Assembly (NCBI RefSeq): GCF_023100945.1
Contig: NZ_CP064689.1
Span: 868,001-932,000 of the forward strand
DNA length: 64,000 nt
From: Bradyrhizobium sp. 200
Lineage (GTDB): Bacteria; Pseudomonadota; Alphaproteobacteria; Rhizobiales; Xanthobacteraceae
Direction: 5' to 3'
Made by a program: the position numbers and the translations under genes. Below, in pieces: positions 1 through 9,240 of the stretch. Below the pieces are notes generated by a model, which was not told the origin of the DNA, ran no database searches, and saw only the letters and a list, made by a program, of their open reading frames with translations. How positions within the stretch are numbered: position 1 is the first letter of the stretch; the number at the start of each line of letters is the position of its first letter.

Positions 1-1591
1 TCAGATCCTGGAACCAGTGCTGCGCCTGCACGAACTTCTTGACCTTCGGCGACAGCGCGTGCGGATTGGTATCGTGCACCACCCAGACCAGCGTGGCGTC
101 GTCGACGATCGCAGCATGCGCCTGCGCCAAGAGTTCGTCCTGTTTGGCGACATCGAACGTCTGCTTGGCCTCATCGATCAATGCATCGACCTTCGGGTTC
201 TTGTAGCCGCCCCAGTTGACGCCGACCGGCGCGATCTGGCCGGAGTGGAAGAAGCGTACGATGGCGTAGAGCGGATCTGAGGTGACATAGGCGATGTTGT
301 TGGAGGTGATGCCGGCGTTCATCTCGTCGGCCGCGCCCTTGCGCCAGGCGGTATATAGCGTCTCGAGCTCGACCACCTTGAAGTCAACATCGATGCCGAT
401 TTCCTTAAAACTCTGCTGCAGGAATTCGTTCATCGGCAGCGACAGCATCTGTCCGGTGCCGCCCTGCGCGATGACGAAGGTGGTCTTCAGCGGCTTCTCC
501 TTGGAATAGCCTGCCTCCTGCACCAGCTTCTTCGCCGCCGCGACATCGTATTTGAGTTCAAAGGACGGCTTGCCAAACCAGGGACTCGACGGGTCGACCT
601 GGCCCTTGGCGGGTTTTGCCAATCCGTTCATCAGCCCGACCACGGCCTCGCGGTCGATCGCCAGATTGAGCGCCTTGCGCAGACGGATGTCGGTCCAGGG
701 CGAGCCGGGCAGCACGCTTAAGTGATAATTCCAGACATGCGGCGTGACGTTGTCGACGATCTTCATGCCGGCCGATTTGAGTTGCGGCACCGCATCCGGC
801 GCCGGCGTCTCGATCAGATCGACCTGGCCGGCCAGCAGCGCATTGGTGCGCGTCAGCGCTTCCGGCATCGGGATCAGCACGATCTTGTCGGCCTTCGGAA
901 TCCGCTTCTTGTCCCAGTAGTCGGCGTTCTTGGTGAGTTCGGCGAGTTCGCGCGGCACAAGTTTGGTCAGCTTGAACGGCCCGGTGCCGGAGGGCTGGCT
1001 GGCGAACTTGTCCCAGTCCTTGCCGAGCTTTTCATATTGCGCGGGGCTCGAGACCAGGAACCAGAGCATCTGATACGGGAAGAACGAATCCACGGTTTTG
1101 GTGGTGATCTCGACCGTGCCGTCGTCGATCTTGGCGTAGCTCGCGACCGAGGGCAGGCGGGTTTTCACCTGCGCGCTCTGGCGCTTGTCGAACTGCGGTG
1201 CCTTGTCGTTGAGCACCTTGTCCAGATTCCAGATCACCGCGTCGGCATTGAATTCGCTGCCGTCGTGAAACTTGACGCCCTTGCGCAGGGTAAAGCGCCA
1301 TTTCTTCTTGTCGGTCTCGCCGACTTTCCATTCGGTGGCCAGGCCCGGCACCAGCTTGCCCGGCCGGTCGGACACGTCCATCTCCCAGGCAACCAGGGGA
1401 TCGTAGATCGTGTACGCCGAGAACTGGTAAGCGCCGGCGCCGCGGTCCGGCTGGCCAGTGGTCAGCGGAATATCCGCCATCGAAATGCCGTAGCGCACAA
1501 CGGTCTCCGCCTGCGCCGAAATTGTAGGCAAGCCAAGAGACAATCCGAGGGCTGCCGCGGCAGCAAGAAGCATCGAATTTCGGGTGCACAT
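1..1591 (-). CDS. Oligopeptide-type ABC transporter solute-binding protein (3' end outside window)
   Basis: Periplasmic solute-binding protein of the DppA/OppA (SBP_bac_5) family, which captures peptides or similar solutes for an ABC importer. About 530 codons are visible and the frame is still open at base 1, so the C-terminus is missing. The ATG at 1591 follows a GGAG box by 8 bases. Residues 1-28 form a Sec signal peptide (cleavage after Ala-Gln-Ala). The product is clearly paralogous to the divergent gene at 1790: both begin with an ETV(V/L)R.G motif and share the WKV..TDKKKW and FHDGS blocks. A consensus sigma-54 promoter lies 39 bases upstream. Its permeases and ATPases may be outside the window, or it may share those of the rightward operon. 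Confidence 0.9.
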   Translation of the reverse strand, partial: MCTRNSMLLAAAAALGLSLGLPTISAQAETVVRYGISMADIPLTTGQPDRGAGAYQFSAYTIYDPLVAWEMDVSDRPGKLVPGLATEWKVGETDKKKWRFTLRKGVKFHDGSEFNADAVIWNLDKVLNDKAPQFDKRQSAQVKTRLPSVASYAKIDDGTVEITTKTVDSFFPYQMLWFLVSSPAQYEKLGKDWDKFASQPSGTGPFKLTKLVPRELAELTKNADYWDKKRIPKADKIVLIPMPEALTRTNALLAGQVDLIETPAPDAVPQLKSAGMKIVDNVTPHVWNYHLSVLPGSPWTDIRLRKALNLAIDREAVVGLMNGLAKPAKGQVDPSSPWFGKPSFELKYDVAAAKKLVQEAGYSKEKPLKTTFVIAQGGTGQMLSLPMNEFLQQSFKEIGIDVDFKVVELETLYTAWRKGAADEMNAGITSNNIAYVTSDPLYAIVRFFHSGQIAPVGVNWGGYKNPKVDALIDEAKQTFDVAKQDELLAQAHAAIVDDATLVWVVHDTNPHALSPKVKKFVQAQHWFQDL

Positions 1592-1629
1592 GAATTAAGC
1601 TCCATCGGACGGGGTTCGGAGCCGAAAAA

Positions 1630-1645
1630 TGCAAGCTTGGTGCCA
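1630..1645 (-). promoter_or_regulatory. Sigma-54 (-24/-12) promoter of the leftward solute-binding gene
   Basis: The minus strand reads TGGCAC-CAAGC-TTGCA, an exact match to the RpoN core (GG, ten bases, GC). The predicted start is near 1619, leaving a leader of about 28 bases that contains the GGAG box of the gene starting at 1591. Such promoters require an AAA+ enhancer-binding activator; none is encoded in this window. Confidence 0.85.
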
Positions 1646-1664
1646 GATGGAGCATGGAAAGCGC

Positions 1665-1690
1665 GCTTGCATGCGCATTCACAGTGAGTT
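1665..1690. promoter_or_regulatory. Candidate activator-binding dyads between the two sigma-54 promoters
   Basis: The 79 bases between the two -24 elements hold short dyads. GCTTGCAT at 1665-1672 mirrors ATGCAAGC at 1629-1636. TCAC-A-GTGA at 1679-1687 sits almost midway between the promoters (38 and 42 bases from each). One of these could be a shared upstream activating sequence, but neither matches the NtrC consensus, so this is inference. Confidence 0.3.
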
Positions 1691-1724
1691 GTGCGGCTAA
1701 TGGCCCCTGACGAAGCGCCTGCCT

Positions 1725-1740
1725 TGGCACAGGCGTTGCA
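1725..1740 (+). promoter_or_regulatory. Sigma-54 (-24/-12) promoter of the dpp-amidase operon
   Basis: The plus strand reads TGGCAC-AGGCG-TTGCA, again an exact RpoN core with ten bases between GG and GC. Transcription should start near 1751, about 39 bases before the ATG at 1790. It faces away from the minus-strand copy at 1630-1645, so both transporters probably answer to one activator. Confidence 0.85.
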
Positions 1741-1789
1741 TACCTTTGCATAAGAATTAGTCACCCAAGTCGAGAAGGAATTGCTGCAT

Positions 1790-3448
1790 ATGCGTAACGA
1801 CAAATCGAAGAAAACGGCCACCGCGTGGCTGCTGGCGACCGCGCTGGTGGTCGGACTGCCGCAGCTTGCGAGCGCCGAAACGGTGCTGCGGATCGGCATG
1901 ACCGCTGCCGATATTCCGCGCACGCTCGGCCAGCCCGATCAGGGCTTTGAGGGCAACCGCTTCACCGGGCTGACCATGTACGACGCGCTGACCATGTGGG
2001 ACCTCTCGTCGGCGGACAAGGCGAGCGTGATGATGCCGGGTCTCGCGACCGAGTGGAAGGTTGACGAGGCCGACAAGAAGAAGTGGACCTTCAAGCTGCG
2101 GCCCGGCGTCACCTTCCATGACGGCTCGCCGTTCAACGCGGAGGCCGTGGTCTGGAACGTCGAGAAGGTTTTGAAGCAGGATGCGCCGCAGTTCGACGCC
2201 AGCCAGGTCGGCGTCACCGCCTCGCGCATGCCGACGCTGGCCTCTGCCCGCAAGATCGACGACATGACGGTGGAATTGACTACCAAGGAGCCGGATAGTT
2301 TTCTGCCGATCAACCTGACCAACCTGTTCATGGCCAGCCCGACCAAATGGCAGGCGTTTTTCGACAAGGCCGAAGGCGCTGACGCCAAGGCGAAATCGCA
2401 GGCTGCGTGGGCTGCGTTTGCCCGGGACGCCTCGGGCACCGGCCCCTGGAAGATGTCGAAATTTACGCCGCGCGAACGGCTCGAACTGGTGAAGAACGAG
2501 GGCTATTGGGACAAGGCCCGCGTGCCCAAGGTCGACCGGATGGTGCTGCTGCCGATGCCGGAGGCAAATGCCCGCACCGCAGCATTGCTGTCCGGCCAGG
2601 TCGATTGGGTCGAAGCGCCGGCACCCGATGCGGTCAAGGAGATCAAGCAGCGCGGCTTCCAGCTCCAGGCCAATGAATCGCCGCATGTCTGGCCGTGGCA
2701 GTTCTCGCGTATCGAAGGCTCGCCCTGGAACGACATCCGCGTCCGCAAGGCGGCCAATCTCTGCATCGATCGCGAAGGCCTCAAGGAGGGACTGCTTGCC
2801 GGCCTGATGGTGCCGGCCACCGGTACCTTCGAGCCCGGTCATCCCTGGCGCGGCAAGCCGACCTTCGAGATCAAGTATGACCTGAAGGCCGCGCAAAAGC
2901 TGATGCAGGAGGCGGGCTATGGTCCGAGCAAGAAGCTGACTGTCAAGACCCAGACCTCGGCCTCGGGCTCAGGCCAGATGCAGCCCTTGCCGATGAACGA
3001 ATATCTGCAGCAGGCGCTGGCCGAATGCTATTTTGACGTCCAGCTCGACGTCATCGAGTGGAATACGCTGTTCACCAACTGGCGCCGCGGCGCCAAGGAT
3101 GCCACCGCCAACGGCGCCAACGCCACCAACGTCACCTACGCGGCGATGGATCCGTTCTTCGCGCTGGTGCGCTTCCTGCAGTCGTCGATGGCGCCGCCGG
3201 TCTCGAACAATTGGGGCTTCATCAACAATCCCAAGTTCGACGAGCTGGTGACCAAGGCCCGCCAGACCTTCGATCCCGCAGCGCGTGACGCGGCACTCGC
3301 CGAACTGCACGCGGCCTCTGTCGACGATGCGGCGTTCCTCTATGTCGCCCACGACGTCTCGCCGCGCGCCATGAGCCCGAAGGTGAAGGGCTTCGTGCAG
3401 CCGAAGAGCTGGTTCGTCGACTTCTCGCCGGTGTCGATGGCGCCGTAG
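1790..3448 (+). CDS. Oligopeptide-type ABC transporter solute-binding protein (DppA/OppA family)
   Basis: Periplasmic receptor (552 aa, SBP_bac_5 family) of the ABC importer encoded downstream. Residues 1-29 (basic start, hydrophobic core, Ala-Ser-Ala) are a Sec signal peptide. The conserved WTFKLRPGVTFHDGS block near residue 95 is typical of the family. The ATG at 1790 is chosen over a TTG at 1781 because the GAGAAGGAA box at 1772-1780 is correctly spaced only for the ATG. It is the first gene of a seven-gene run on one strand (dppA-B-C-F-DUF4089-amidase-dppD). It is driven by a sigma-54 promoter at 1725. The ligand is unknown; the embedded amidase suggests an amide or short peptide. Confidence 0.92.
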   Translation: MRNDKSKKTATAWLLATALVVGLPQLASAETVLRIGMTAADIPRTLGQPDQGFEGNRFTGLTMYDALTMWDLSSADKASVMMPGLATEWKVDEADKKKWTFKLRPGVTFHDGSPFNAEAVVWNVEKVLKQDAPQFDASQVGVTASRMPTLASARKIDDMTVELTTKEPDSFLPINLTNLFMASPTKWQAFFDKAEGADAKAKSQAAWAAFARDASGTGPWKMSKFTPRERLELVKNEGYWDKARVPKVDRMVLLPMPEANARTAALLSGQVDWVEAPAPDAVKEIKQRGFQLQANESPHVWPWQFSRIEGSPWNDIRVRKAANLCIDREGLKEGLLAGLMVPATGTFEPGHPWRGKPTFEIKYDLKAAQKLMQEAGYGPSKKLTVKTQTSASGSGQMQPLPMNEYLQQALAECYFDVQLDVIEWNTLFTNWRRGAKDATANGANATNVTYAAMDPFFALVRFLQSSMAPPVSNNWGFINNPKFDELVTKARQTFDPAARDAALAELHAASVDDAAFLYVAHDVSPRAMSPKVKGFVQPKSWFVDFSPVSMAP

Positions 3449-3475
3449 GAGAGACGCTTCTGCTCGCTCGCTCGC

Positions 3476-3652
3476 TTCCCCCTCTCCCCTTGTGGGAGAG
3501 GGTGGATCGAATGAGCGAAGCTCATTCGAGACGGGTGAGGGGTTCTCTCCGCGGACGTGCCTCCCTCATCTGAAAGACCTGCGTCCGCGGATAGAACCCC
3601 TCATCCGGCGCGCATGAATGCGCGCCACCTTCTCCCACAGGGGGAGAAGGGA
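3476..3652. repeat. Palindromic intergenic element, family A, copy 1 (two halves)
   Basis: The spacer between dppA and dppB holds two mirrored half-elements. Each has a CTCTCCC...GGGAGAGGG-type hairpin and a GGTGAGGGGT/ACCCCTCATC core. Related copies lie at 22213, 36244, 40981 and 48621. It sits inside an operon, so it may shape mRNA stability and favour more binding protein than permease; that role is inference. Confidence 0.8.
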
Positions 3653-3669
3653 AGAAGAAAAAGTGACTC

Positions 3670-4623
3670 GTGTTTGCTTACATCGCCCGGCGTATCGTCT
3701 ACGTCATTCCGATCGTGCTCAGCGTCGCGCTGGTGTGTTTCCTCCTGGTGCACATCACGCCCGGCGATCCGCTGGTGGCCGTGCTGCCGGCTGACGCATC
3801 GCAAGAGCTCGCCGCGCAACTGCGCACCGCCTACGGCTTCGACCGTCCACTGCCGGTTCAGTTCGGCCTGTGGCTGTGGCGCGCGCTCCATGGCGATCTC
3901 GGCAGTTCAATCGCCACCGGCCGCCCGGTACTGTCGGAGGTGCTGCGTGCGGTCAGCAACACGGTCACGCTCGCGATTGCCGCAGCCCTGATCGGCTTTA
4001 CGCTCGGGCTATTGTTCGGCCTGATCGCCGGCTATTTTCGCGACACCTGGATCGACAAGGTCGCGACCTCGATCGCGATCGCCGGCGTCTCGGTGCCGCA
4101 TTACTGGCTCGGCATGGTGATGGTCATCATCTTCTCGGTGCAGCTCAACTGGCTGCCCGCGGTCGGCGCCGGCCCCGGCGGCTCCGGTTCGTGGGGCTGG
4201 GACTGGGAGCACATGAAGTATCTCATCCTGCCGGCGATCACGACCTCGGTGATTCCGATGGGCATCGTGACCCGCACCGTGCGCGCGTTGACCGGCGATA
4301 TCCTTTCGCAGGATTTCGTCGAGGCGTTGCGCGCAAAAGGCCTGCGTGAACTCGACGTGTTCAAGCACGTCATCAAGAACGCCGCGCCGACCGCGCTCGC
4401 GGTGATGGGGTTGCAATTGGGCTACATGCTCGGTGGCTCGATCCTGATCGAGACCGTGTTCTCCTGGCCCGGCTCGGGCCTGCTGCTCAATTCGGCGATC
4501 TTCCAGCGCGACCTGCCGCTGCTGCAGGGCACGATTTTGGTGCTGGCGCTGTTCTTCGTGGCCCTCAATCTGCTGGTCGATATCGCGCAGGCCGCGATCG
4601 ATCCGCGCATCAAGCGGGGCTAG
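3670..4623 (+). CDS. Oligopeptide-type ABC transporter permease (DppB family)
   Basis: Inner-membrane permease of 317 aa with six predicted membrane segments, starting with the Y-I-x-R-R-I sequence usual for DppB/OppB. The EAA coupling motif that contacts the ATPases is visible as EALRAKGLRELDVFKHVIKN near residues 218-237. The GTG start at 3670 is the first start codon giving the family's N-terminus; its GGAGAAGGGA box lies rather far upstream inside the preceding repeat, so the start is moderately certain. It pairs with the next permease to form the transmembrane channel. Confidence 0.9.
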   Translation: MFAYIARRIVYVIPIVLSVALVCFLLVHITPGDPLVAVLPADASQELAAQLRTAYGFDRPLPVQFGLWLWRALHGDLGSSIATGRPVLSEVLRAVSNTVTLAIAAALIGFTLGLLFGLIAGYFRDTWIDKVATSIAIAGVSVPHYWLGMVMVIIFSVQLNWLPAVGAGPGGSGSWGWDWEHMKYLILPAITTSVIPMGIVTRTVRALTGDILSQDFVEALRAKGLRELDVFKHVIKNAAPTALAVMGLQLGYMLGGSILIETVFSWPGSGLLLNSAIFQRDLPLLQGTILVLALFFVALNLLVDIAQAAIDPRIKRG

Positions 4624-4688: not shown

Positions 4689-5576
4689 ATGACCGTGATG
4701 TCGGATACCGCCCTGCAAGCCGCGCCCGCCACCAAGGCGCGCGGCTATTGGGCCACCGTCGGCCGCCGCATCGCCCGCGACAAGGTCAGCATGGCTTGCG
4801 CCTTCGTGCTGGTGCTGATCTTTCTGTCCGCGCTGCTCGCGCCATGGCTCGGCCTTGCCGATCCCTATCAGGGTTCGATGATCCGCAGGCTTCGCCATAT
4901 CGGCACGCCGAACTATCCGCTCGGCACCGACGAGCTCGGCCGCGACATGCTGGCGCGGCTGATCTATGGCGGCCGGCTGTCGCTGATCATCGGTATCCTT
5001 CCCGTGATCCTCGCCTTCGTGATCGGCACCTCGCTCGGGCTCGTCGCCGGCTATGTCGGCGGCAGGCTCAACACCGCAATCATGCGCACCATCGACGTGT
5101 TCTACGCCTTTCCGTCGGTGCTGCTGGCGATCGCGATCTCCGGCGCGCTGGGCGCGGGCATCGTCAACTCCATCGTCTCGCTCACGATCGTATTCGTTCC
5201 GCAGATCACCCGCGTCGCCGAGAGCGTCACCACCGGCGTGCGCAACATGGATTTCGTCGAAGCCGCGCGCGCGTCGGGCGCCGGACCCTTCACCATCATG
5301 CGCGTGCACATGCTGGGCAATGTGCTCGGCCCGATCTTCGTCTACGCAACAGGATTGATCTCGGTGTCGATGATCCTCGCCGCCGGCCTGTCATTCCTTG
5401 GCCTCGGCACAAAACCGCCGGAGCCGGAATGGGGCCTGATGCTCAACACGCTGCGCACCGCGATCTATGTCAATCCATGGGTGGCGGCGCTGCCGGGTGT
5501 CATGATTTTTGCGGTGTCGATCTGCTTCAATTTGCTCAGCGACGGCATGCGCAGCGCCATGGATATCAGGAACTGA
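4689..5576 (+). CDS. Oligopeptide-type ABC transporter permease (DppC family)
   Basis: Second inner-membrane permease, 295 aa, of the DppC/OppC family. It has the N-terminal cytoplasmic tail and first membrane helix (about residues 33-55) that distinguish DppC from DppB. The conserved [17 protein letters not shown] block follows the first periplasmic loop, and the EAA coupling loop [20 protein letters not shown] lies near residues 193-212. The ATG at 4689 is followed by five more predicted helices. Only four bases separate its stop codon from the ATPase gene at 5581, which indicates translational coupling. Confidence 0.92.
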
Positions 5577-5580
5577 CGCG

Positions 5581-6660
5581 ATGAATGAGACGAGCCCGCC
5601 AGTCGAGCTACTGGAGCCGGTCGAGGACGTTGGTGGCGCGGCGCAGCCGCTGCTGCAGGTTTCCGGCCTGACCAAACATTTCCCGGTGCGGGGCGATCTG
5701 TTCAGCCCTCGTAAAACCGTGCGCGCGGTCGATGATGTTTCCTTCTCCATCGCTAAGGGCGAAACGGTCGGGATCGTCGGCGAATCCGGCTGCGGCAAGT
5801 CGACCACCGCGCGGCTCTTGATGCACCTGATGAAGCGCGATGCCGGCGATATCGTCTATGACGGCATGCAGGTCGGCCGCGCGCTTTCCTTGCGCGAACT
5901 GCGCCGCGGCATGCAGATGGTGTTTCAGGACAGCTACGCCTCGCTCAACCCGCGCCTGACCATCGAGGATTCCATCGCGTTCGGCCCCAAGGTTCACGGC
6001 ATGGCGGATGCTGCCGCGCGGCTGCTGGCGCGCGAGCTGCTCGGCAAGGTGGGCCTGCGGCCCGAAACCTTCGCCAACCGCTATCCGCACGAGATTTCCG
6101 GTGGCCAGCGCCAGCGCGTCAACATCGCGCGTGCGCTGGCGCTGTCGCCGCGGCTCGTGATCCTCGATGAAGCCGTCTCGGCACTGGACAAATCGGTCGA
6201 AGCGCAAGTGCTCAATTTGCTGGCGGACCTGAAGCGCGAGTTCGGCCTCACGTACTTATTCATCAGCCATGATCTCAACGTGGTGCGCTACATCTCGGAC
6301 CGCGTGCTGGTTATGTATCTCGGCGAAGTTGTCGAACTCGGTCCGGTCGACAAGGTCTGGGATGCGCCGGCGCATCCCTATACGCGGGCGCTGCTGGCAG
6401 CGATGCCGTCGTCCGACCCTGACAACCGCACCGAGACGCCGCCGATCTCGGGCGATCCGCCCAATCCGATCGATCCGCCGCCCGGCTGCCGGTTTCACAC
6501 CCGATGTCCGTTTGCGGAGCCGCTCTGCGCAAATGCGACGCCAAAACTCAGCGATGTCGATACAATGGGCCATCAGGCGGCGTGCTACATGGCCATTGCT
6601 GGCTCCGGGCACAGCCGCGCACCGGCCAAAGAAAATGACAAGGGAGCAACCGCCGTATGA
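5581..6660 (+). CDS. Oligopeptide-type ABC transporter ATPase (DppF/OppF family)
   Basis: ATP-hydrolysing subunit, 359 aa. Visible motifs are Walker [10 protein letters not shown], signature [15 protein letters not shown], Walker [13 protein letters not shown] and H-loop FISHD. The C-terminal oligopeptide-specific domain has the Cys-rich [11 protein letters not shown] sequence. The Walker B neighbour is DEA rather than the usual DEP, a small oddity that leaves the catalytic Glu intact. The ATG at 5581 is preferred over longer in-frame extensions that run back into dppC. Its stop overlaps the ATG of the next gene by four bases. It acts together with the DppD-type ATPase at 8260. Confidence 0.92.
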
Positions 6661-6854
6661 CAAGACCCGATCCCAAGCAGGTCAAGGTAATGACCGACGT
6701 CGCCGGCGTTCCGCAGGATTCGGAGGTTTCCGCGCGCATCGCCAATTCCATCGGCCCGGCCTTCGACGGCTTTGCGTCGATCGCTGGTACACTGCCGATG
6801 GATCTCGAGCCGGCAAGCTTCCTTCTCGTACAGAACGCCAGGGTGTCGAAATGA
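6657..6854 (+). CDS. DUF4089 (AtzG-like) small protein, probable GatC-fold partner of the amidase
   Basis: A 65-residue protein overlapping the upstream ATPase gene by four bases (ATGA) and the downstream amidase gene by four bases. The core VAGVPQDSEVSARIANSIGP and the IAGTLPMDLEP segment resemble DUF4089 proteins such as AtzG. AtzG is a GatC-like subunit that binds and stabilises the amidase AtzE in cyanuric-acid degradation. The same one-to-one pairing with an amidase is seen here, so a stabilising partner role is likely. This is family inference; the protein has no catalytic motif of its own. Confidence 0.75.
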   Translation: MTRPDPKQVKVMTDVAGVPQDSEVSARIANSIGPAFDGFASIAGTLPMDLEPASFLLVQNARVSK

Positions 6855-8263
6855 GCGGCGAACCAGCCCTGATGTCGCTGGTGTCGGTCGCCAAGGCAAT
6901 CGCCGACAAGAAATTGTCCTCGCGCGAGGTGACGCAGTCCTGTCTCGACCGGATCGCGCAATGGCAGCCGCGCGTCAACGCGTTCATGGCGATCGAGGCG
7001 GAGGAGGCGCTTGCTGCCGCTGACGCCGCCGACGCTGATCTTGCCAAGGGCAAGAATCTGGGCGTGCTGCACGGCGTGCCGATGGCGCACAAGGACATGT
7101 ATTACGAGGCCGGCAAGGTCGTGACCTGCGGCTCAAAGATCCGGCGCGATTACGTGGCGACGACGACCTCCACTGCATTGCAGCGGCTGAAGGATGCCGG
7201 CTCCGTCAGGCTCGGCTCGCTGCAGATGGTGGAGTTCGCCTACGGTCCGACCGGCCACAACGTGCATTACGGCGCGGTGCGCAACCCCTGGAATGTCGAT
7301 CACATCACCGGCGGCTCGTCGTCCGGCTCCGGCTCGGCCGTGGCGGCGCGGCTGACCTTTGCGGCGCTCGGCTCCGATACCGGCGGCTCGATCCGGATGC
7401 CCGCGCATTTCTGCGGCGTCACCGGCTTCAAGACCTCGGTCGGCCTGATCAGCCGCGCCGGCGCGATGCCGCTATCGCAATCGCTCGATACGGTCGGCCC
7501 GCTCGCGCAAACCGTCGAAGACTGCGCGCTGCTGGTCGGCCTGATGGCGGGCGCCGACCCCGAAGATCCCACCACCTCGACGCTCCCGGTGCCGAACTAC
7601 ATGGCGGCGACCACAGGCTCGCTCAAGGGTCTCAGGATCGGTGTGCCGACTGCGTTCTATGTCGATGACCTCGATTCCGAAGTGGCGCGGGTGCTGGACG
7701 AAACCATCGCCACCCTCGGACGCGAGGGCGCCGAGATCGTCAAGGTCGAACTGCCGGATCAGCGTCAGCTCACCGCCGCCTGCCAGATCGTGCTCGCGAC
7801 CGAAGCCGCCGCCTTCCACAAGCGCTGGATGATCGAGCGGCCGCAGGATTACGGCGCGCAGGTCTTGATGCGGCTGCAGAACGGGCTTGCGATTCCTGGC
7901 GTGACCTATCTCGAAGCGATGCGCTGGCGCGGGCCTGCGCTTGCCGCCTACCTCGCAGCGGTCACCGGCACCGATGCCGTGATCGCGCCGGTCGCGCCGA
8001 TGCCGGCCGCGACCATTGCCGAAAGCGATGTCGGCAACAGCCTCGATGCGGAAGCTGTGATCCAGCGGATCACAAAATTCACCCGGCCGATCAACTATCT
8101 CGGTCTGCCGTCGCTCTCGATTCCTACGGGCTTCACCGCAAAGGGCCTGCCGGTCGGCATGCAGTTGATCGGCCGCCCCTTCGACGAGGCCGGGCTGTCA
8201 CGGATCGGTGCGGCGTTCCAGCGCGCCACCGACTATCACCTTCAGGTACCGAAAGCTGTATGA
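6851..8263 (+). CDS. Amidase-signature hydrolase (GatA/AtzE family)
   Basis: Amidase-signature enzyme, 470 aa, hydrolysing a carboxamide or a related C-N bond. The Ser-cisSer-Lys triad is visible: Lys in HKDMYYEAG (near residue 80), cis-Ser in GGSSSGSGSAVAA and the nucleophile Ser in SDTGGSIRMPA. It has no signal peptide, so it works in the cytoplasm on imported substrate. The ATG at 6851 overlaps the stop codon of the DUF4089 gene, and its own stop overlaps the start of dppD. Being locked between two transporter ATPase genes, it very likely acts on the transported compound. The substrate cannot be named from sequence. Confidence 0.9.
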   Translation: MSGEPALMSLVSVAKAIADKKLSSREVTQSCLDRIAQWQPRVNAFMAIEAEEALAAADAADADLAKGKNLGVLHGVPMAHKDMYYEAGKVVTCGSKIRRDYVATTTSTALQRLKDAGSVRLGSLQMVEFAYGPTGHNVHYGAVRNPWNVDHITGGSSSGSGSAVAARLTFAALGSDTGGSIRMPAHFCGVTGFKTSVGLISRAGAMPLSQSLDTVGPLAQTVEDCALLVGLMAGADPEDPTTSTLPVPNYMAATTGSLKGLRIGVPTAFYVDDLDSEVARVLDETIATLGREGAEIVKVELPDQRQLTAACQIVLATEAAAFHKRWMIERPQDYGAQVLMRLQNGLAIPGVTYLEAMRWRGPALAAYLAAVTGTDAVIAPVAPMPAATIAESDVGNSLDAEAVIQRITKFTRPINYLGLPSLSIPTGFTAKGLPVGMQLIGRPFDEAGLSRIGAAFQRATDYHLQVPKAV

Positions 8264-9240
8264 GCAACCTCGTCGAAATCCGCGATCTCAACATTCGCTT
8301 CACCGGCGAGCGCACGGTTCACGCCGTCAACGACATCTCGCTCTCGCTTGGCGAAGGCGAGGTGCTCGGCCTGCTCGGCGAATCCGGCTCCGGCAAGAGC
8401 GTGACCCTGCGCGCGCTGATGCGGCTGTTGCCGCGGAAGCGGACGCAGATTTCAGGAACCGTGAAGGTGCTGGGACGCGACGTGCTGGCGATGAACGAGG
8501 AACAGCTTTCGGCGTTCCGCGGCCAAACCGTCTCCATGATCTTCCAGGAGCCGGCGCTGGCACTCGATCCCGTCTACACGATCGGCCACCAGATCGCGGA
8601 AAGCGTGATGCGCCATGAGGGCAAGAGCCAGAAGGAGGGGATGGCGCGCGCGCTGGAAATGCTGGAGGTGGTGCGGATTCCCTCCGCCAGGCGCCGCCTC
8701 GAGGCTTATCCGCACGAAATGAGTGGCGGCATGCGGCAGCGCGCGATGATCGCGCTGGCGCTGGCCTGCAAGCCGAAAATCCTGCTGGCCGACGAGCCGA
8801 CCACGGCGCTGGACGCCACGGTGCAGATCCAGATCCTGCTGCTGCTCCGCGAATTGCAGCGCGAGTTCGGCATGTCCGTGATTTTCGTGACCCATGACAT
8901 CGGCGTCGCCATCGAAATCTGCGATCGTGTCGCCGTCATGTATGCCGGCCAGATCGTGGAGCAGGGCCGCCTGCGCGACATCGTGCGCACGCCGGCGCAT
9001 CCCTATGCCAAGGGGTTGCTGGCCTCGACCGTGCACGGCGCCAAGCGCGGCCAGCGGCTGGAGACCATCCCGGGCACGCCGCCCTCGCTCGACAAGGCGC
9101 CCGCGAGTTGCTCGTTCGCGCCGCGCTGCAGTTCGGCGCAGCCGCGCTGCAGCGAGCGATTGCCGCCCAATGTGCAGGTGTCGCCGGATCGCACCGCGCG
9201 CTGCGTGCTGGCGGAGCGGGCTGAAGCGACCGCGAGCTAA
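8260..9240 (+). CDS. Oligopeptide-type ABC transporter ATPase (DppD/OppD family)
   Basis: Second ATPase of the importer, 326 aa. It carries Walker A GESGSGKSV, signature MSGGMRQRAMIALAL, Walker B ILLADEPTTALD, H-loop FVTHD and the C-terminal oligo_HPY region with the FAPRCSSAQPRC cysteines. The ATG at 8260 overlaps the amidase stop by four bases. In most dpp operons dppD sits next to dppF; here two genes for an amidase and its partner lie between them, so the operon order is unusual. It is the last gene of the run. Confidence 0.92.
   Translation: MSNLVEIRDLNIRFTGERTVHAVNDISLSLGEGEVLGLLGESGSGKSVTLRALMRLLPRKRTQISGTVKVLGRDVLAMNEEQLSAFRGQTVSMIFQEPALALDPVYTIGHQIAESVMRHEGKSQKEGMARALEMLEVVRIPSARRRLEAYPHEMSGGMRQRAMIALALACKPKILLADEPTTALDATVQIQILLLLRELQREFGMSVIFVTHDIGVAIEICDRVAVMYAGQIVEQGRLRDIVRTPAHPYAKGLLASTVHGAKRGQRLETIPGTPPSLDKAPASCSFAPRCSSAQPRCSERLPPNVQVSPDRTARCVLAERAEATAS

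What the first reader, a model, noticed from the sequence alone, without database searches (positions are those of the whole stretch)
1592..1789. Two face-to-face sigma-54 promoters serve two paralogous peptide-uptake systems
Seen: TGGCAC-N5-TTGCA occurs exactly once on each strand (1725-1740 plus, 1630-1645 minus), each with the GG-N10-GC spacing and correct distance to the nearest start codon. Both genes encode DppA-type binding proteins. Known: RpoN promoters need an AAA+ activator and are used mainly for nitrogen, carboxylate and similar nutrients. Inference: one activator switches two scavenging systems, one of which also encodes an amidase, perhaps under nitrogen limitation.
Basis: partly seen in the sequence, partly recalled or inferred. 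Interest (0 to 1): 0.7.

Follow-up and report, generated by a model that had tools for sequence, protein, structure and literature searches.

The report
Nitrogen-switched divergent promoters, one importer
Two back-to-back promoters of the special sigma-54 type, conserved in Bradyrhizobium, drive two alternative binding proteins for what looks like a single nutrient importer, and a site resembling that of the nitrogen regulator NtrC sits on one of the two predicted start points.

Summary
The two TGGCAC-N5-TTGCA boxes are the only exact copies in the window, and both boxes, in slightly looser form, are present in 80 of 80 related loci. The promoters are divergent, not face to face. They serve one importer with two binding proteins: the minus gene stands alone, while the plus operon carries permeases, ATPases and an amidase. 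What is conserved is a 17-bp element at 1747-1763, TGCATAAGAATTAGTCA. A motif built only from glnB and glnK1 upstream sites picks it as the best site in 79 of 80 loci (74 of 80 with the most similar site left out; 0 of 400 permuted motifs did as well) and also finds the dusB-ntrB-ntrC operon. Four accessory sigma-54 activators are absent from many locus-bearing genomes. The surprise is position: the site covers -4 to +13 of the plus promoter at fixed distance (77 of 80 loci) and lies about -136 from the minus start. It could activate one promoter and brake the other. No experiment; no literature could be read.

The parts
1..1591 (-). Lone binding-protein gene (SBP_bac_5), running off the window; its stop lies about 20 bases further, in L037; monocistronic
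   Evidence: no related transport genes within 2.6 kb behind it in 70 of 70 testable loci
1585..1601 (.). Second NtrC-like 17-mer TGCACATGAATTAAGCT, overlapping the start of the minus gene; scores lower in the window's near relatives and is not among the top sites of most other clades shown
   Evidence: score 13.8; 10.3-11.2 in L067, L069, L074; p 3e-5 with glnB site A left out
1630..1645 (-). Sigma-54 promoter of the minus gene, TGGCACCAAGCTTGCA; predicted start 1619
   Evidence: 80 of 80 loci
1638..1654 (-). Conserved extension upstream of the minus -24 box (TGCCTATTCTGGCATCA on the minus strand in most relatives); role unknown
   Evidence: poor NtrC score, median p 0.0016
1680..1693 (.). 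Dyad CACAGTGAGTTGTG near the midpoint between the two promoters (1.5 bp off it in the window); role unknown
   Evidence: ACA-N6-TGT in 56 of 81 sequences, in 50 of these 56 within 1 bp of the midpoint
1725..1740 (+). Sigma-54 promoter of the plus operon, TGGCACAGGCGTTGCA; predicted start 1751
   Evidence: 80 of 80 loci
1747..1763 (.). NtrC-type site TGCATAAGAATTAGTCA, covering -4 to +13 of the plus promoter and centred about 136 bp upstream of the minus start
1790..3448 (+). Plus binding-protein gene (SBP_bac_5)
3479..3651 (+). Long hairpin-forming intergenic element between binding protein and permease
3670..4623 (+). Permease, DppB/OppB type
4689..5576 (+). Permease, DppC/OppC type
5581..6660 (+). 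Transport ATPase, DppF/OppF type
6848..8263 (+). Amidase-signature hydrolase, AtzE/GatA-like (below the curated AtzE cut-off); exact start not determined
8260..9240 (+). Transport ATPase, OppD type

Best explanation
This is the control region of one nitrogen-scavenging ABC importer that has two alternative periplasmic binding proteins. Two divergent sigma-54 promoters read out from an 80-bp centre: leftwards a lone binding protein, rightwards an operon of binding protein, permeases, ATPases and an amidase. Under nitrogen limitation phosphorylated NtrC binds the 17-bp site at 1747-1763. From there it acts as an ordinary enhancer (about -136) on the leftward promoter by DNA looping. On the rightward promoter the same site covers the start point, so bound NtrC also meters that promoter (a brake or governor) instead of merely switching it on. 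Shown by sequence: both promoter boxes, their conservation, the gene order, the motif match and its fixed position. Inferred: that the 17-mer is bound by NtrC, the direction of its effect on each promoter, nitrogen limitation as the signal, and that both binding proteins use the one set of permeases.
For: Both promoter boxes in 80 of 80 loci. Motif from glnB and glnK1 upstream sites: the 1747 element is the best 17-mer of the 510-bp region in 79 of 80 loci, in 74 of 80 with glnB site A left out, and 1 of 784 background windows of the own genome reaches its median score. Permuted motifs reached these counts in 0 of 400 each. Among 15 distinct hits at score 12.3 or more in about 0.65 Mb of own-genome sequence, two lie before dusB-ntrB-ntrC, one before glnK1 and one between amtB and glnK2; none of these four was used to build the motif. 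Accessory activators are lacking in many of the 98 locus-bearing genomes: 44 lack L038, 38 lack L047, 81 lack L045, 59 lack L044, and 14 lack all four. No activator gene was found in the fetched flanks (up to 10 kb) of 80 loci. The genome has a clear NtrC (747 bits, cut-off 558.6) with GAFTGA; NtrX has no GAFTGA.
Against: A site over -4 to +13 is an unusual place for a sigma-54 activator and should hinder polymerase on the plus promoter. glnB, glnK1 and dusB-ntrBC have two motif copies 20-28 bp apart; here only one copy is strong in most clades. The classical enteric core GCAC-N7-GTGC is in only 1 of 81 intergenic sequences. A motif built the other way round, from the 1747 elements themselves, did not list the glnB sites among its top 15 hits. 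With the two glnK1 sites alone the motif singles out the element in only 43 of 80 loci; with glnK1 site D alone in 1 of 80. Seven of the 15 high-scoring hits lie inside unrelated open frames. L041, another response regulator, is nearly universal (in 96 of the 98 locus-bearing genomes); the distribution of FlbD and of NtrC itself was not tested.
Confidence: 0.66

Rival explanations
1. The two sigma-54 promoters are driven by another, nearly universal activator (the L041 response regulator or FlbD), perhaps through the central dyad at 1680-1693; the 1747 element is only a secondary NtrC site or a repressor site.
For: L041 is in 115 of 117 genus genomes, including 96 of the 98 with the locus. A dyad sits within 1 bp of the midpoint between the promoters in 50 of the 56 sequences that have it.
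Against: The dyad is missing in 25 of 81 sequences although both promoters stay. G006 (93% complete) and G319 (67% complete) have the locus but no L041 match. The NtrC-type element scores 12 or more in 79 of 80 loci and 11.4 in the other.
Confidence: 0.17
2. NtrC drives only the leftward promoter; the rightward promoter has its own activator and is shut off when NtrC is bound, so the binding proteins are swapped according to nitrogen supply.
For: The site is locked to the plus start (offset 22 in 77 of 80 loci) while its distance to the minus promoter box varies over 91-114 bases.
Against: The permeases lie only in the plus operon, so shutting it off would starve the leftward binding protein of its channel unless a basal level remains. 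The overlap also fits a mild brake.
Confidence: 0.28
3. An accessory activator (PAS type L038, AcoR-like L047, or the response regulators L044, L045) is the cognate regulator.
For: All four are in this genome and carry GAFTGA.
Against: Absent at the chosen thresholds from 44, 38, 59 and 81 of the 98 locus-bearing genomes; 14 lack all four. Three of these 14 (G015, G025, G032) were fetched and have both promoter boxes.
Confidence: 0.04
4. The boxes are chance or relics without function.
For: Looser matches are at chance level in the window.
Against: 80 of 80 loci keep both boxes while much of the sequence between them changes.
Confidence: 0.02

Closest known systems
NtrC/sigma-54 promoters of nitrogen genes (glnB, glnK, dusB-ntrBC of the same genus; glnAp2 of enterics, recalled)
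   Same: Sigma-54 box (seen for glnB) plus 17-bp sites of the form TGC-N11-(near GCA), seen upstream of glnB, glnK1 and dusB-ntrBC
   Different: Here the site overlaps the start of one promoter and serves a divergent pair; the others have paired upstream sites
Dpp/Opp/Nik family ABC importers (SBP family 5)
   Same: Binding protein, two permeases and two ATPases with oligo_HPY domains
   Different: Two alternative binding proteins under separate sigma-54 promoters; all listed scores are below the curated NCBIfam cut-offs (best 25 families shown per protein); an amidase inside the operon
AtzE/biuret hydrolase and GatA-like amidases
   Same: Amidase-signature family, near full-length match
   Different: 347.9 bits against a 461-bit cut-off for AtzE; substrate unknown
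Governor sites of glnAp2 (recalled, not looked up)
   Same: Low-placed NtrC sites that damp a sigma-54 promoter
   Different: Here the site is at the start point and is the strongest of the region

Membership tests
Sigma-54 promoter | GG-N10-GC with TGGCA / TTGC context | tested here: met
   80 of 80 loci on both strands
Sigma-54 promoter | Start 12 bases after the GC; loss of transcript in rpoN mutant | not testable with these tools
   needs 5'-RACE and a mutant
NtrC-controlled promoter | Site matching the NtrC motif of the same genus | tested here: met
   the motif itself was built here from glnB and glnK1 upstream sites, not taken from binding data
NtrC-controlled promoter | Classical enteric core GCAC-N7-GTGC (recalled) | tested here: not met
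   1 of 81 intergenic sequences
NtrC-controlled promoter | Site upstream at enhancer distance | tested here: inconclusive
   about -136 for the minus promoter; -4 to +13 for the plus promoter
NtrC-controlled promoter | Two or more sites in phase | tested here: inconclusive
   one strong site in most clades; 45 weaker hits 41-43 bp upstream of it over 80 loci; a second strong one at 1585 in the window
NtrC-controlled promoter | Functional-looking NtrC in the genome | tested here: met
   TIGR01818 747 bits over a 558.6 cut-off, GAFTGA present
NtrC-controlled promoter | Response to nitrogen limitation through NtrC | not testable with these tools
   needs expression data
NifA-controlled promoter | TGT-N10-ACA upstream site (recalled) | tested here: not met
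   none in the window's intergenic region; 8 of 81 sequences
Dipeptide importer DppABCDF | DppA equivalog score | tested here: not met
   100.6 and 87.1 bits against a cut-off of 1005
SBP family 5 ABC importer | SBP_bac_5, BPD_transp_1 pair, ABC_tran with oligo_HPY | tested here: met

The most novel reading that the evidence does not exclude
NtrC works on both faces of one divergent sigma-54 pair: bound at a single site it activates the lone binding-protein promoter by looping and, by lying on the start point, restrains the sigma-54 promoter of the importer operon. The importer's binding protein would thus be exchanged or re-proportioned according to nitrogen supply.
Probability: 0.3. Interest if true: 0.68.

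Novelty: new variant of a known kind. Interest (0 to 1): 0.47.

Why it matters
It turns a loose guess into a short testable model: a conserved pair of binding proteins for one importer, wired to nitrogen control through one site whose position predicts opposite effects on two promoters. It also gives a candidate NtrC motif for Bradyrhizobium, which could be used to map the regulon of these soil and root-nodule bacteria.

Tried and rejected
Activator next door: tblastn (E <= 1e-10) of 11 own activators against the 80 loci (flanks up to 10 kb, shorter at contig ends), the window and the 20 kb upstream gave no hit. NtrX was considered (recalled CAA/TTG-type motif) but it has no GAFTGA, so it is not expected to activate sigma-54 promoters. 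NifA: no UAS in the window's intergenic region. Central dyad as the universal activator site: missing in 25 of 81. Second NtrC site over the minus -24 box: scored poorly (median p 0.0016; an earlier score of it was off by one base and is not used). A motif from the 1747 elements themselves did not bring up the glnB sites in its top 15; only the softer motif from the gln sites linked the two. Guessing glnII at 4.43-4.83 Mb to enlarge the motif: no class-II synthetase signature found there; the stretch served as background instead. Strict DNA patterns (over the family, over the genus) missed most loci because the first base and flanking letters vary; the protein search replaced them. The script found only glnB because its start pattern was too narrow; that stopped with an error after its first listing and was rewritten.

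Rows dropped before counts: of the 22 DNA loci, L034 and L035 (short matches) and L036 (second match of the same contig) were left out of the 19-row alignment. L034 is probably the real locus cut by a contig end. The 80 loci are the best 80 of 477 confirmed and are related to one another, so they are not 80 independent tests. Of the 12 glnK1 sequences, 11 fitted the site pattern and were used from then on; the 5 glnK2 sequences were not used for the motif.

Selection: glnB site A was first noticed because it looks like the 1747 element, and the other three sites were picked by eye as conserved blocks. The tests without A are the fairer ones.

Literature: 10 paper searches and one look-up by DOI all failed for time. 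Nothing was read, and I make no claim about what is in print. A study of the NtrC regulon of B. japonicum is recalled only.

Full report
What is there. The two boxes are as described: 1725-1740 on the plus strand and 1645-1630 on the minus strand, each GG-N10-GC, each the only exact copy in the window. Loosened by two mismatches the pattern is at chance level (15 found, 18 expected), so the case rests on the exact pair and on conservation. In the own 9.49-Mb genome TGGCA-N6-TTGCA occurs 18 times against 6 for the pattern read backwards, and this is the only pair of the 18 within 1 kb. The promoters read away from each other. Predicted starts are 1751 and 1619.

Genes. The minus gene is a binding protein of SBP family 5 that ends about 20 bases beyond the window. 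The next gene there runs towards it from the other side, and no permease or ATPase related to the plus operon's lies within 2.6 kb behind it in 70 of 70 relatives with enough flank (8 had less flank, 2 had no minus gene found at 75% identity). The plus operon is binding protein, two permeases, ATPase, amidase, ATPase, complete in the same order in 75 of 80 relatives; the other five are cut short or incomplete in the fetched stretch. The two binding proteins are 51% identical. So this looks like one importer with two binding proteins. None of the NCBIfam models shown for these proteins is reached at its cut-off (best 25 per protein shown). The amidase is AtzE/GatA-like and below the AtzE cut-off. 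The substrate is unknown; an amide- or peptide-like nitrogen source is an inference.

Conservation. A DNA search found the region in 21 of 60 genomes, own genome included, all of the same genus. A profile search of the GTDB species genomes gave 477 confirmed relatives, of which the best 80 were kept: 77 labelled Bradyrhizobium, plus Rhodopseudomonas rhenobacensis (L120), a Tardiphaga MAG (L132) and a record labelled Frankia sp. RB7 (L143). All 80 carry both promoter boxes in the form TGG[CT][AG]-N6-TTGC[ACT], 83-84 bp apart in 65 of 80. In the genus the plus binding protein is in 98 of 117 sampled genomes at E <= 1e-200. A strict DNA pattern of the plus promoter found it in 7 of 198 family genomes, all of the same genus.

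Which activator. The genome holds 14 matches to the sigma-54 activator domain, of which 12 score above 180 bits. No activator gene was found in the fetched flanks of the 80 loci. Tested over the same 117 genomes: PAS-type L038 in 59, AcoR-like L047 in 73, response regulators L045 in 21, L044 in 43, L041 in 115. Set against the 98 locus-bearing genomes, L038 is missing in 44, L047 in 38, L044 in 59 and L045 in 81, and 14 lack all four (from handle lists copied out); L041 is missing in 2, G006 and G319. Thresholds were chosen by me, so absence means absence at that threshold. NtrC, NtrX, FlbD, the two NifA-like proteins, L048 and a broken activator frame (L009/L046) were not tested this way.

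The NtrC-type site. Upstream of glnB (13 genomes) and of glnK1 (12 genomes) conserved pairs of 17-mers of the form TGC-N11-(near GCA) lie 20 bp apart (pattern fitted in 13 of 13 and 11 of 12). A symmetric motif from these four sites scores TGCATAAGAATTAGTCA at 1747-1763 at p 2.5e-6, that is, as high as the single best of 400,000 background positions. Across the 80 loci this element is the best 17-mer of the 510-bp upstream region in 79; without site A in 74; with glnB sites alone in 78; with glnK1 sites alone in 43; with site B, C or D alone in 72, 54 and 1. Of 400 permuted motifs each, none reached 74 or 79 (highest 59 and 73). As an outside check the motif was run over about 0.65 Mb of own-genome sequence: 15 distinct hits reach 12.3. 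Two are training sites, two are in this locus, two lie before dusB-ntrB-ntrC (AGCACAAATCTTGGGCA and TGCCTACACTTTAGACA, 28 bp apart, intergenic), one lies 20 bp before glnK1 and one between amtB and glnK2 (these two fall inside opposite-strand open frames of the mechanical list that I take as spurious), and seven lie inside other open frames. Of the 18 own-genome sigma-54-like loci, the two of this pair (one shared site) and L053 have a site at p 3e-6. Against this: a motif made from the 1747 elements did not list the glnB sites in its top 15, and the enteric core GCAC-N7-GTGC is in 1 of 81 sequences. That these 17-mers are NtrC sites rests on their place before classical NtrC targets and on established knowledge of NtrC, not on binding data.

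Position. The element starts 22 bases after the T of the plus TGG in 77 of 80 loci (21 in two, 12 in one; in the Tardiphaga locus L132 the -12 box itself forms the left half), but 91-114 bases from the minus box. It covers -4 to +13 of the plus promoter and is centred about 136 bp upstream of the minus start in the window. The latter is a normal enhancer distance. The former should compete with polymerase. The lock to the plus start suggests that the overlap itself matters. The simplest model is activation of the minus promoter and a brake on the plus promoter, with weaker or clade-specific sites (1585 in the window; 45 weaker hits 41-43 bp upstream of the element over the 80 loci) helping the plus side. 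This part is inference.

Left unexplained. A dyad (ACA-N6-TGT in 56 of 81; ACAA-N4-TTGT in 46 of 81) lies between the promoters, in 50 of the 56 within one base of the midpoint (1.5 bases off in the window itself), and is replaced by another block in, for example, tropiciagri- and elkanii-labelled strains. A TGCC extension precedes the minus -24 box in most loci.

Verdict. An ordinary kind of part (sigma-54 promoters, NtrC, an SBP-5 importer) in an uncommon arrangement, well conserved and now with a concrete candidate activator. No literature could be read, so novelty in print is not judged.

Noticed in passing
window 3449-3669: A roughly 200-nt gap between the plus binding-protein gene and the first permease folds into a very stable hairpin in the window (-144.7 kcal/mol; 200 dinucleotide shuffles mean -83.6, sd 5, z -12.2). 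The gap is about 175-225 nt in 70 of 79 relatives and also folds stably in the few shown whose sequence differs (L120, L136; no shuffles run for them). It could favour binding protein over permease.
   Followed up: partly
window 3491, 3631, 36257, 36363, 40995, 41098, 48632, 48721: TGTGGGAGA/TCTCCCACA occurs in four couples in the window, which fits a dispersed intergenic repeat.
   Followed up: no
L053 (G000:C1:2850868, +): A sigma-54-like box with an NtrC-type 17-mer 232 bp upstream (p 3e-6), about 130 bp before an ATG whose first residues look like a signal peptide by eye; possibly another nitrogen-controlled binding protein.
   Followed up: no
L147-L176, upstream of glnB and glnK1: Paired 17-bp sites 20 bp apart upstream of glnB and glnK1, with a fixed sigma-54 box TGGCATAGACCCTGCT before glnB in 13 genomes; a candidate NtrC motif for Bradyrhizobium.
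   Followed up: partly
L046 (G000:C1:7305000-7313000): A broken-looking sigma-54 activator frame (229-aa open frame) beside genes that look like recombinases by eye.
   Followed up: no
L039, L040: Two NifA-like activators (by eye, GAF-type with GAFTGA) in one genome.
   Followed up: no
window 1680-1693 and relatives: Dyad at or near the midpoint between the two divergent promoters in most clades, lost in others; binder unknown.
   Followed up: partly
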